From Candidatus Zixiibacteriota bacterium (GTDB lineage: Bacteria; Zixibacteria; MSB-5A5; SM23-73-2), in assembly GCA_030615745.1 (NCBI GenBank), contig JAUWYR010000053.1, forward strand, positions 1-13,627: 13,627 bases of DNA, read 5' to 3'. A program made the position numbers and the translations under genes. The notes beneath the pieces are model-generated. The model was not told the DNA's origin and made no database searches. It was given only the letters and a program-made list of their open reading frames with translations. Of this stretch, positions 9,402 through 13,627 are shown in pieces; the stretch's first letter is position 1, and each line of letters starts with the position of its first letter.

Positions 9402-10673
9402 ATGCATATTAAAAATATCCTTAGTTTTCTCATCATAGTTTTTTTGTCTTTTCCAATCAATTCTTTTGCTGACAAAATTCTTATCCCCATGGATTTTCAT
9501 CAAACAGACCATCTCAAAGCGTATGGCGTTGCCTATTGGATTTTAGACCAGGGACAAGATGTGGAATGGCTTTTAAACTATCGTTGTGGCTCATTTATGA
9601 CAGAAGCAAATGAAAACATCAAAAGCCACTGTAGATTGCAAGGTGTTTTTTTTGAGCTGGCAAGCCCGACCCAAGCTGGAGCAATCTATAAAAAGATAGA
9701 GGAAAATAACATGGAGGTGGTGCTCTTGGAAAAAGCACCTTTAATTGCAATATACACCCCTCCTCATAAAGAGCCCTGGGATGATGCAGTAACTTTAGCT
9801 TTAACCTATGCAGAGATACCTTATACCACCCTATGGGATGAAGAGGTTTTAACCGGTGAGCTGGAAAAATGTGATTGGCTACATCTTCATCATGAGGATT
9901 TCACAGGACAATATGGAAAATTCTATGCTGCCTACAGAAATGCCTTATGGTATAAACAGGAGCAAGCCATCTGCGAAAGGGTGGCGAGAAAACTCGGATT
10001 TAAAAAAGTCTCAGATGAGAAAAAGGTGGTTGCAGAAACGATAAAAGAATATATTGCTCGCGGTGGATTTCTCTTCGCTATGTGCTCTGCGCCAGAGACT
10101 ATGGATATAGCCTTAGCAGCAAAAAGAGTCGATATTGTGCCCCAGGAGTTAGATGGGGACCCGGTCGATTTTGATTGTCAAAAAAAGCTCGACTATTCAA
10201 AATGTCTGGCTTTCACCGACTTCGAGGTGAATACCAATCCATTAGAATACGAACATTCAAATATTGATACCACACCGGATAAACTTCGTTTCATAGGCAA
10301 TCCCCAGGCAGACTTTTTCACCCTTTTCGACTTCTCTGCTAAATTGGACCCTGTTCCAAGCATGCTTGTTCAAAACCATGTGAATGGGGTCAACGGTTTC
10401 ATGGGGCAGACAACCGGATTTAAAAAAGATCTTGTGAAAAAGTATGTGATCATCTTAGGAGAGACTTTGGGACAGAATGAGGTTAAATACCTTCACGGAA
10501 ATTTTGGAAGAGGGACTTTTACATTTTTTGGAGGACATGACCCAGAGGATTACCAGCATCGGGTTGGGGACCCACCCACAGATTTAAACCTTCACAAAAA
10601 CTCATCCGGTTACCGGTTGATCTTAAACAATATCTTGTTCCCAGCTGCTAAGAAGAAGGAGAGAAAGACTTAG
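9402..10673 (+). CDS. exported protein of the 'asparagine synthetase B-like' family, function unknown
   Basis: A 423-residue protein with a clear signal peptide (hydrophobic residues 6-20, predicted cleavage after SFA at 23), so it is periplasmic or secreted. I recognise the family from Bacteroidota-type genomes, where it is usually called asparagine synthetase B. Landmarks are DKILIPMDFHQTDHLKAYG (24-42), WLLNYRCGSFM, the central DWLHLHHEDFTGQYGKFYAA, GGFLFAMCSAPETMDIALAA, and near the end FFGGHDPEDYQHRVGDPPTD. The asparagine synthetase label looks wrong: the mature protein does not begin with the catalytic Cys of AsnB and has no visible ATP-pyrophosphatase loop, and the protein is exported. 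The sheet-and-helix pattern around GGFLFAMCSA resembles class I glutamine-amidotransferase-like folds. A weak AGGA lies 10 nt before the ATG. The true activity is unknown. Confidence 0.75.
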   Translation: MHIKNILSFLIIVFLSFPINSFADKILIPMDFHQTDHLKAYGVAYWILDQGQDVEWLLNYRCGSFMTEANENIKSHCRLQGVFFELASPTQAGAIYKKIEENNMEVVLLEKAPLIAIYTPPHKEPWDDAVTLALTYAEIPYTTLWDEEVLTGELEKCDWLHLHHEDFTGQYGKFYAAYRNALWYKQEQAICERVARKLGFKKVSDEKKVVAETIKEYIARGGFLFAMCSAPETMDIALAAKRVDIVPQELDGDPVDFDCQKKLDYSKCLAFTDFEVNTNPLEYEHSNIDTTPDKLRFIGNPQADFFTLFDFSAKLDPVPSMLVQNHVNGVNGFMGQTTGFKKDLVKKYVIILGETLGQNEVKYLHGNFGRGTFTFFGGHDPEDYQHRVGDPPTDLNLHKNSSGYRLILNNILFPAAKKKERKT

Positions 10674-10829: not shown

Positions 10830-12023
10830 ATGGAAAACAAACCTAAAGTCTACTACATCACTCAATTTGCCACTGCATTTTGCTGGGGCTCGATTTTCCC
10901 TGTTTATGTCCTTTATTTCCGGAACTATGATCTTAATCTTTTTCAAATCGCCTTGATGGCAGCTATATTTGAAGCTTCTATTTTGATTTTCGAGCTACCA
11001 ACAGGACTGGTCGCTGATATCTATGGCAGAAAAATCTCACTGGTGCTTTCAAATGCGGTCCTTTTTATCGGGGGTTTAATCTTTTTGAGCTTCCCCTCAC
11101 TTATCGGGTTTATCTTCGGAGAGATAATTATTGGATTGGGTGATACTCTGAAATCCGGAGCATTTGAAGCCTGGATTTTCGATTCATTAAAATATGAAGG
11201 AAAAGAGAAAAAAACAAAATTTGTCTTTTCTCAGGGGAAAAGATACCAGACATCAGGAAGGCTTATCGGAATGATTTTAGGTGGATACATAGGCTTTTGG
11301 AATATAAGATTTGTCTGGTATCCATATGTTTTTGGCTTTTTGGTTACTTTTTTATTCTTACTTTTTGCAATGAGGGAGGAATACTGGCAAAAAGGGGAAG
11401 AAAAGAAAGGGGTCTTCAGGCAAATCAAAGATACGGTGAATAAAAGCTTAAAAGTCGTTCGATGTGAAAAGATGGTCTTTGCTTTGATATTTTTAGGACT
11501 TTTTTTTAGCTTCTCCTTTGAGACAATCTCTCAGTTCTGGCAGGTTCACTTTTCAGAAAATCTATCTGTTGCCACAAGCTATTTTGGATGGATAGTTGCA
11601 GGAGCTTCCCTTCTTGTAATTTTATTGGTAAATAAAATTACCAAGTTTACAGAAAAATTTAGACGAGAGACCACTCTTTTAATAATTTTAAAAATAGGAT
11701 TTTTCATAAGTTTAATGATCATAGCTTTTACCAAAAGTCCATTTATAGCCATAATCTTTTTTATCCTTTTGCAAGCCTTTGAAGGTTTTTCTGAACCAAT
11801 ATTTTTAGATATATTTAATCGCCATATCCCTTCAGAACAGAGGGCGACCCTTTTGTCTTTTCAGAGCATGACCGGTTCTGCGGGAGAAGTTTTAGCGGGG
11901 TTATGTATTGGTGTTTTTGCTTTGAGATTCGGGCTTCGCTTAACTTTCGGCTTGGGTTCTTTAGTTTTGATTTCAGGATTGGTAGTTTTCTGCCTTTTAA
12001 TTTTAAAGGTTAAAAAACCATAG
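10830..12023 (+). CDS. major facilitator superfamily transporter (DHA-like)
   Basis: A 397-residue inner-membrane transporter with about 12 hydrophobic segments, the usual MFS length and layout. The MFS motif A is present between segments 2 and 3 (TGLVADIYGRKISL, 58-71). A charged cytoplasmic loop at about 182-215 (REEYWQKGEEKKG...) separates the two six-helix halves. The sequence is most like proton-driven drug or metabolite exporters of the DHA type, but the substrate cannot be read from sequence. The start codon lacks a Shine-Dalgarno sequence and sits 20 nt after a strong hairpin. The KARI-like gene begins 36 bp downstream on the same strand, so the two may form an operon; if so, the transporter might handle a product or substrate of that enzyme, which is only a suggestion. 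Confidence 0.85.
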   Translation: MENKPKVYYITQFATAFCWGSIFPVYVLYFRNYDLNLFQIALMAAIFEASILIFELPTGLVADIYGRKISLVLSNAVLFIGGLIFLSFPSLIGFIFGEIIIGLGDTLKSGAFEAWIFDSLKYEGKEKKTKFVFSQGKRYQTSGRLIGMILGGYIGFWNIRFVWYPYVFGFLVTFLFLLFAMREEYWQKGEEKKGVFRQIKDTVNKSLKVVRCEKMVFALIFLGLFFSFSFETISQFWQVHFSENLSVATSYFGWIVAGASLLVILLVNKITKFTEKFRRETTLLIILKIGFFISLMIIAFTKSPFIAIIFFILLQAFEGFSEPIFLDIFNRHIPSEQRATLLSFQSMTGSAGEVLAGLCIGVFALRFGLRLTFGLGSLVLISGLVVFCLLILKVKKP

Positions 12024-12059: not shown

Positions 12060-13040
12060 ATGAGGTCAAAACTTTTGGTTTATAAAGGTAAAGACGCAAA
12101 TTTAAATCACATAAAAAATAAAACCATAGCCATCTTAGGATATGGTTCACAGGGAAGGGCTCAGGCTCTGAATTTAAGGGATAGCGGCTTGAAGGTTATC
12201 ATCGGCTTGCCGAAAAAAAGCAAAAAAAGAAAAATCGTAAAAAATGATGGGTTTGAGGTTTTTTCAACAGAGGATGCTACAAAAAAAGCTGATATACTCT
12301 CTTTTTTAGCTCCTGACCATCTTCACCAGCAGATTTTTGAAACACAGATTAAGAAGAATTTAAAAAAAGGACAGGCAATAATTTTTGCCCATGCCTTCTC
12401 AGTTCATTTTAAATTAGTTCAGCCACCTGAATATGTTGATGTGATTTTAGTTGCACCCCATGGACCAGGAGAGCTTCTCCGAAAGAATTTCCTTCAAGGT
12501 AGCGGTTTAACATCTTTTTTTGCTATTTTTCAAGATTATTCAAAGAATGCAAAAAAAATCGGTTTAGCTTATGCTAAAGGTGCTGGTTTAATTAAACCCG
12601 GGATGATCAAGACAACTTTTGAGGATGAAGCAATAGGGGATATTTTCGGAGAACAGGCAGTATTATGTGGAGGTCTTTCTGAGCTTATAAAAAATGGATT
12701 TGAGACCTTGGTTGAGGATAGGATTTCACCTGAGAATGCTTATCTGGAATGTGTGTATCAGCTCGATCTGATAGTTAATTTGATCAAATCTTATGGGATT
12801 TCCGGGATGTATAAAAGGGTAAGCAAGCTTGCTGAATACGGTTCATATCTTTCAGGTAAAAGGGTTATAAACAAAGACCAGATGAGAAAAATACTAAAAG
12901 AGATAAAAGCTGGAAAGTTCACCCAGAGATTCTTAAAAGAATTTCAAACCGGAGCGAAAAATTATAAAAATAAAAAAAGGTCATACCAGAAGCATTTGTT
13001 AGAGAGGACTGGGGAGAGGATGCGGAGGAGAGTGGGATAG
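12060..13040 (+). CDS. ketol-acid reductoisomerase (class I)-like protein, divergent active site
   Basis: True ketol-acid reductoisomerase (IlvC) uses NADPH and two Mg2+ to isomerise and reduce acetolactate in valine/isoleucine synthesis. The 326-residue length and order of motifs fit class I: Rossmann motif GYGSQG (27-32), then FAHAFSVHF with catalytic H111, VAPHGPGELLR (131-141), FEDEAIGDIFGEQAVLCGG with metal ligands D194 and E198, YLECVYQL (229-235), and VSKLAEYG (254-261) with S255. Two normally invariant positions differ. The catalytic Lys of VAPKGPGH is H134, and the fourth metal-binding Glu is Q234; E230 is kept. The KKSKKRK stretch after GLP (53-59) fits NADPH use. No ilvB, ilvN, ilvD or leu gene is adjacent. 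It could be a true but divergent IlvC or a paralog with another reaction, so I give no gene symbol. Confidence 0.8.
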   Translation: MRSKLLVYKGKDANLNHIKNKTIAILGYGSQGRAQALNLRDSGLKVIIGLPKKSKKRKIVKNDGFEVFSTEDATKKADILSFLAPDHLHQQIFETQIKKNLKKGQAIIFAHAFSVHFKLVQPPEYVDVILVAPHGPGELLRKNFLQGSGLTSFFAIFQDYSKNAKKIGLAYAKGAGLIKPGMIKTTFEDEAIGDIFGEQAVLCGGLSELIKNGFETLVEDRISPENAYLECVYQLDLIVNLIKSYGISGMYKRVSKLAEYGSYLSGKRVINKDQMRKILKEIKAGKFTQRFLKEFQTGAKNYKNKKRSYQKHLLERTGERMRRRVG

Positions 13041-13340: not shown

Positions 13341-13412
13341 TTAAAAGGATCCTCATTTCATCTTTTTATTCTGGAGTTTCAATTTGACCAAACGGAGGGG
13401 AGATTAATCTCT

Positions 13413-13619
13413 CTATTCGCTGGTTTTTTTAATGTCGACAGCCTGAGGACCTTTATTCCCCTTAGTAACAGTAAACTCCAGATGATCTCCTTCCTCTAAT
13501 TTATCAAAGTCCACATCCTGAAGTTCTGAGCGATGAAAAAATATCTCTCTTCCGTCCTCAGCCAAAATGAATCCAAATCCCCTTTCTCTCATTATCCGCT
13601 TTACTGTCCCTTTAGACAT
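13413..13619 (-). CDS. cold-shock domain protein (CspA family)
   Basis: A 68-residue single-domain, OB-fold nucleic-acid-binding protein of the CspA family, which melts RNA secondary structure and binds single-stranded DNA or RNA in the cytoplasm. RNP1 is GFGFI (14-18) and RNP2 is IFFHRSEL (26-33). The usual ending GPQAVDI is present. Compared with the classic KWFN(x)KGFGFI opening, this one reads TVKRIMRERGFGFILAEDG, a common variant of non-cold-induced members. The gene is complete, but only 8 bp lie beyond its start, so its promoter and leader are outside the window. A long cold-shock leader cannot be assessed. Confidence 0.92.
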   Translation of the reverse strand: MSKGTVKRIMRERGFGFILAEDGREIFFHRSELQDVDFDKLEEGDHLEFTVTKGNKGPQAVDIKKTSE

Positions 13620-13627
13620 ACTTTTAT

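What the first reader, a model, noticed from the sequence alone, without database searches (positions are those of the whole stretch)
12060..13040. Ketol-acid reductoisomerase-like protein with two changed active-site residues and no ilv neighbours
All class I KARI landmarks are present in order, yet the catalytic Lys in VAPKGPGH is His (H134, in VAPHGPGE), and one of the four metal-binding acids (second Glu of the ECLHE motif) is Gln (Q234, in ECVYQ). The other ligands D194, E198, E230 and catalytic H111 are kept, and the length is normal, so this looks selected and not decayed. It sits 36 bp behind an MFS transporter and has no branched-chain biosynthesis gene nearby. It may be a paralog that has gained another reaction on a related substrate.
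Basis: partly seen in the sequence, partly recalled or inferred. Interest (0 to 1): 0.65.

Follow-up and report, generated by a model that had tools for sequence, protein, structure and literature searches.

The report
KARI-derived reductase likely making pantoate
In an uncultured bacterial phylum that has lost branched-chain amino-acid synthesis, a relative of the enzyme ketol-acid reductoisomerase survives with its isomerising residues fixed to other amino acids, and it probably now does one step of vitamin B5 (coenzyme A) synthesis that otherwise has no enzyme in these genomes.

Summary
Window 12060-13040 encodes a full-length class I KARI-type protein. His134 replaces the catalytic Lys, and Gln234 replaces the second Glu of the ExxxE metal/base motif. 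It is the only KARI homologue in a 98.6%-complete genome. It is not a lone odd paralogue: 90 of 98 related genomes (114 of 126 in the phylum) carry an ortholog. In 65 aligned members Gln234 is 65/65, the Lys is never present (50 His, 14 Leu, 1 Ala), and the remaining acids and Ser255 are 65/65 kept. These members form one clade (98/99 support). Dihydroxyacid dehydratase is absent from all 98 genomes, so classical branched-chain amino-acid synthesis cannot be its role. The pantothenate pathway has a matching hole: the genome has panB, panC and panD side by side but no PanE and no PanG. Across the class, 65 of 67 near-complete genomes with PanB and PanC have this protein; one of the other two has a PanE-type enzyme instead. 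Best reading: a reductase-only KARI that reduces ketopantoate to pantoate, having lost the alkyl-migration step. IlvC standing in for PanE is known in Corynebacterium and Buchnera. A dedicated, phylum-wide version was not found described. Activity is untested.

The parts
12060..13040 (+). KARI-derived protein, 326 aa, proposed reductase-only ketopantoate reductase
12138..12161 (+). nucleotide-binding loop, GYGSQGRA (Gly27-Ala34)
12390..12392 (+). His111 (E. coli KARI His132 position), kept here; Cys/Ala/Ser in 6 of 65 relatives
12459..12461 (+). His134 codon (cat), replaces catalytic Lys; His/Leu/Ala in the family, never Lys
12627..12641 (+). E190-A-I-G-D194 in place of canonical ETETD; E190 and metal ligand D194 kept, Gly193 fixed
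12651..12653 (+). Glu198, metal ligand, kept
12747..12749 (+). Glu230, first Glu of the ExxxE motif, kept
12759..12761 (+). Gln234 codon (cag), replaces second Glu of ExxxE; fixed as Gln in 65 of 65 family members
10830..12023 (+). upstream MFS transporter gene; shared gene order only within the genus, not considered part of the function

Best explanation
The gene encodes a reductase-only descendant of class I KARI that most likely serves as the ketopantoate (2-dehydropantoate) reductase of coenzyme A synthesis. SHOWN by sequence: KARI family over full length, nucleotide-binding loop, first metal site (Asp194, Glu198), Glu190, Glu230 and Ser255 kept; the Glu that takes the substrate proton before methyl migration is fixed as Gln, and the catalytic Lys is lost, across a whole phylum; no DHAD, PanE or PanG in the genome; panB, panC and panD present. 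INFERRED: Mg2+ holds the carboxylate and 2-keto group of ketopantoate, hydride is passed from NAD(P)H to C2, and no alkyl migration occurs because Gln234 cannot act as the base; pantoate then goes to PanC. Ketoisovalerate for PanB would have to come from valine or a branched acyl-CoA, not from acetolactate.
For: Sole KARI homologue. DHAD 0/98 with control 14/14. PanB 87/98, PanC 92/98. Own panB, panC and panD adjacent and over curated cut-offs. PanE family absent from the own genome; 15 of 16 PanE-family hits in the phylum sit with 6-hydroxycyclohexene-carbonyl-CoA dehydrogenase-type genes of aromatic degradation, and the one left (G076) is in a genome without the KARI-like gene. PanG/DUF2520 0/98. 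Among 74 genomes at least 90% complete, 65 of 67 with PanB+PanC have the KARI-like protein; with the aromatic-cluster hits set aside, 65 have it alone, 1 has PanE alone, 1 neither, 0 both. Residue pattern fixed in 65 members, one clade, purifying selection. IlvC replaces PanE in Buchnera and C. glutamicum (PMC4306246). KARI isomerase and reductase activities can be separated in vitro (PMC4353338). In spinach KARI, D315, E319 and E496 are the catalytic residues, with E496 protonated just before methyl migration (PMC11264209); E496 is the second Glu of ExxxE by motif spacing.
Against: No activity data. The gene is never next to pan genes in the loci examined. PanB, PanC and the KARI-like gene are all near-universal in this class, so their co-occurrence is weakly discriminating. 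One complete genome (G017) has PanB and PanC but neither PanE nor the KARI-like gene. Another unknown reductase could fill the step. The metal site is partly altered and His111 is lost in 6 of 65, so the substrate could be a different 2-keto acid.
Confidence: 0.68

Rival explanations
1. A reductase-only KARI descendant acting mainly on another 2-keto acid (for example hydroxypyruvate or a branched 2-keto acid in amino-acid fermentation), with pantoate made by an unrelated enzyme.
For: The KARI relative BurG reduces hydroxypyruvate (PMC9359912) and KARIs are promiscuous reductases (PMC4353338). No pan-gene linkage.
Against: Near-universal retention in a class with a pantothenate pathway lacking just this step; no other ketopantoate reductase family detected.
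Confidence: 0.2
2. A working ketol-acid reductoisomerase with unusual residues, making 2,3-dihydroxyisovalerate.
For: Scores above the curated KARI cut-offs; six of the eight conserved polar active-site positions kept.
Against: The isomerisation base (Glu to Gln) and catalytic Lys are lost in all members (role of the Glu from PMC11264209). No DHAD in any of 98 genomes to use the product.
Confidence: 0.05
3. A substitute pyrroline-5-carboxylate reductase (ProC) for proline synthesis, an activity known in some Streptomyces KARIs.
For: ProC missing from 92 of 98 genomes; promiscuous P5CR activity of KARIs (PMC4353338).
Against: ProA is also missing: 0 of 98 over cut-off, so the glutamate route to proline is absent as a whole, unlike the pantothenate route.
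Confidence: 0.04
4. A specialised-metabolite enzyme such as BurG (cyclopropanol formation) or another rearrangement.
For: Precedent for a repurposed KARI fold (PMC9359912).
Against: Core-gene distribution, vertical inheritance, neighbours are housekeeping or unrelated genes; no biosynthetic cluster.
Confidence: 0.03

Closest known systems
Class I ketol-acid reductoisomerase (IlvC, EC 1.1.1.86)
   Same: Both Pfam domains, full length, about 42-46% identity, nucleotide loop, E190/D194/E198/E230/S255
   Different: Catalytic Lys is His/Leu/Ala; second Glu of ExxxE is Gln; ETETD is E-x-hydrophobic-G-D; no ilv genes nearby, no DHAD in the genomes
IlvC acting as ketopantoate reductase in Corynebacterium glutamicum and Buchnera
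   Same: KARI-fold protein filling the missing PanE step (PMC4306246; Merkamm 2003 cited in PMC4353338)
   Different: There it is a normal bifunctional KARI of a working valine pathway with a side activity; here the isomerase residues are lost and the valine pathway is incomplete
PanE/ApbA ketopantoate reductase (TIGR00745) and PanG (DUF2520)
   Same: Proposed reaction
   Different: Other families; neither found in this genome
BurG of the malleicyprol pathway
   Same: KARI fold with a new function; its E232Q variant loses cyclopropanol formation but keeps NADH reduction of hydroxypyruvate (PMC9359912)
   Different: Secondary-metabolite cluster, NAD-dependent, about 1e-35 match only; equivalence of E232 with Q234 not tested

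Membership tests
Ketol-acid reductoisomerase (IlvC) | KARI_N and KARI_C domains over full length | tested here: met
Ketol-acid reductoisomerase (IlvC) | catalytic Lys of the APKGPGH motif | tested here: not met
   His134 here; 0 of 65 family members have Lys
Ketol-acid reductoisomerase (IlvC) | four metal-site acids D, E, E, E | tested here: not met
   second Glu of ExxxE is Gln in 65 of 65
Ketol-acid reductoisomerase (IlvC) | a downstream step (dihydroxyacid dehydratase) in the genome | tested here: not met
   0 of 98, control 14 of 14
Ketol-acid reductoisomerase (IlvC) | acetolactate conversion | not testable with these tools
   needs an enzyme assay
PanE/ApbA ketopantoate reductase | ApbA_C domain | tested here: not met
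   protein matches KARI domains, not ApbA; none in own genome
PanG ketopantoate reductase | DUF2520 domain | tested here: not met
   0 of 98
IlvC-type ketopantoate reductase (functional class) | pantothenate pathway present with the PanE step missing | tested here: met
IlvC-type ketopantoate reductase (functional class) | ketopantoate reduction or rescue of a panE ilvC mutant | not testable with these tools
   needs experiment
Pyrroline-5-carboxylate reductase (functional class) | proline route from glutamate present with ProC missing | tested here: not met
   ProC absent but ProA absent too
BurG-type repurposed KARI | specialised-metabolite gene cluster around it | tested here: not met

The most novel reading that the evidence does not exclude
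A whole bacterial phylum has turned its only KARI into a dedicated single-step ketopantoate reductase by fixing a base-to-amide change that switches off alkyl migration, with the rest of branched-chain amino-acid synthesis lost; current 'ilvC' annotations of such proteins would be wrong, and pantothenate synthesis in the phylum would be complete.
Probability: 0.6. Interest if true: 0.62.

Novelty: new variant of a known kind. Interest (0 to 1): 0.52.

Why it matters
KARI joins an alkyl migration and a reduction in one active site. A natural, phylum-wide family in which the isomerisation residues are fixed to non-functional ones while the reductase residues stay would be a clean evolutionary dissection of that bifunctional enzyme. 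It would also fill a missing step of coenzyme A synthesis in an uncultured lineage, and correct an annotation: curated models call this protein ketol-acid reductoisomerase, which would lead metabolic reconstructions to credit a valine pathway that is not there.

Tried and rejected
Second canonical ilvC in the genome: none. Proline rival: ProC is missing but so is ProA. Gene context as a guide: neighbours differ between families of the class (MFS; pyrE-like and a GNAT protein; nadC and birA; pdxJ; endonuclease III), none of them pan genes. PanE hits in 16 genomes looked like evidence against until 15 proved to be one ortholog set inside an aromatic-degradation cluster. Statistical test of PanE against KARI-like presence with all ApbA hits counted: not significant. 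AlphaFold model from a two-sequence alignment was poor (mean pLDDT 59.7) and was not used. Scans of viral contigs found no relative; the one genome-contig scan found only a canonical archaeal KARI. The key mutagenesis paper (Tyagi 2005, FEBS J) is not held.

Full report
THE OBSERVATION. The ORF at 12060-13040 (+) is 326 aa and starts 36 bp after an MFS transporter gene. It matches KARI_N (2.6e-62) and KARI_C (3.8e-42) end to end and passes two curated KARI cut-offs. Alignment with solved KARIs and with named canonical KARIs from Tistrella, Sinorhizobium, Gemmatirosa, Streptomyces, Natribaculum and Enterococcus confirms both changes: His134 in place of the catalytic Lys, and Gln234 in place of the second Glu of the ExxxE motif.

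IT IS A PHYLUM-WIDE FAMILY, NOT A PRIVATE ODDITY. The genome (2.28 Mb, 98.6% complete) has this one KARI homologue only. 90 of 98 relatives and 114 of 126 genomes held for the phylum have a homologue, almost always as one copy (a few are split over contig ends). In 65 aligned members Gln234 is 65/65, position 134 is His 50, Leu 14, Ala 1, and never Lys; E190, D194, E198, E230, S255 and Gly193 are 65/65; His111 is 59/65. The 65 form one clade against canonical KARIs (98/99 support) and follow the host families, so the gene is old and looks vertically inherited. Against the same-genus ortholog the amino-acid identity is 81%, dS is about 1.2 and dN/dS about 0.09: strong purifying selection.

IT CANNOT BE A CLASSICAL ILVC. 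Dihydroxyacid dehydratase, the next enzyme of valine and isoleucine synthesis, is absent from all 98 genomes while the control rings in 14 of 14. In spinach KARI the catalytic residues are D315, E319 and E496, and E496 is protonated, with the substrate deprotonated, just before methyl migration (PMC11264209). E496 is the second Glu of ExxxE, which is Gln234 here (equivalence by motif spacing and alignment). A Gln cannot take that proton. The residues for binding the first Mg2+ and the nucleotide are kept. From general knowledge (Tyagi et al. 2005, not held here), several active-site changes in E. coli KARI remove isomerase and leave reductase; [quoted passage not shown]

THE PATHWAY HOLE. The genome has panB, panC and panD in a row on another contig (L095 9026-9829, 8119-8964 and 7486-7845), all above curated cut-offs, but no PanE and no PanG-type DUF2520. 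Across the 98 genomes PanB is in 87 and PanC in 92. PanE-family proteins appear in 16 of 132 genomes, but 15 of these are one ortholog set. In the cluster examined (L099) the set lies beside genes over the cut-offs for 6-hydroxycyclohex-1-ene-1-carbonyl-CoA dehydrogenase and 6-oxocyclohex-1-ene-1-carbonyl-CoA hydratase, that is, aromatic degradation, and homologues of these or of the adjoining benzoyl-CoA-reductase-like gene flank all 15. The remaining one, in G076, is a stand-alone TIGR00745 protein, and G076 lacks the KARI-like gene. Among genomes at least 90% complete with both PanB and PanC (67), 65 have the KARI-like gene, G076 has PanE instead, and G017 has neither. This is one replacement event, so it is suggestive and no more.

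MECHANISM PROPOSED. Ketopantoate, made by PanB, binds through its carboxylate and 2-keto group to Mg2+ at Asp194/Glu198; hydride from NAD(P)H reduces C2; the base needed for alkyl migration is gone. Pantoate goes to PanC. The metal count, cofactor preference and substrate are inferred. IlvC taking over the PanE step is established in Buchnera and C. glutamicum (PMC4306246; PMC4353338), there as a side activity of a normal KARI. I found no paper in the held library describing a dedicated, isomerase-dead form; that is a limit of the library, not proof of novelty.

RIVALS. Proline: ProC is missing from 92 of 98 genomes and KARIs can have P5CR activity, but ProA is missing too, so there is no pathway to complete by the glutamate route. 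Another 2-keto acid reductase role stays possible. A BurG-like specialised role is unlikely given core-gene distribution and housekeeping neighbours.

LIMITS. No enzyme data. Gene context is not conserved beyond the genus. PanB, PanC and the KARI-like gene are all near-universal here, which makes co-occurrence weak evidence. AHAS and transaminase genes were not searched. The structure model was too poor to use.

Noticed in passing
L099 8683-9642, L100 4012-4959, L102 8283-9230 and 12 further genomes (L113, L115-L125): An ApbA/PanE-family dehydrogenase is a constant member of a benzoyl-CoA-type aromatic degradation cluster in 15 genomes of this phylum; annotation as 2-dehydropantoate 2-reductase is probably wrong and its role in dearomatisation is open.
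   Followed up: partly
whole class (98 genomes): DHAD 0/98, ProA 0/98 and ProC 6/98: the class appears unable to make branched-chain amino acids or proline by the standard routes, though it keeps pantothenate synthesis.
   Followed up: partly
L110 3989-5041 (Eleftheria terrae plasmid): A very divergent KARI-like protein (Arg at the Lys position, Ser at the second ExxxE position) sits between a thioester-reductase megasynthase and an fkbH gene, so perhaps another repurposed KARI in a biosynthetic cluster.
   Followed up: no
L109 3980-5008 (Haladaptatus plasmid): A divergent protein annotated ilvC (Arg at the Lys position, about 32% identity) lies among mandelate-racemase-family genes and not ilv genes.
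   Followed up: no
G017 (100% complete): Has PanB and PanC but neither a KARI-like protein, a PanE-family nor a DUF2520 protein; how it makes pantoate is unexplained.
   Followed up: partly
window 9402-10673: Secreted-looking 423-aa protein with no Pfam or NCBIfam match; its order with the MFS and KARI-like genes is kept in the same-genus genome G001 (L052).
   Followed up: no
window about 13400-13620, minus strand: A small cold-shock-protein-like ORF reads on the minus strand near the window end.
   Followed up: no
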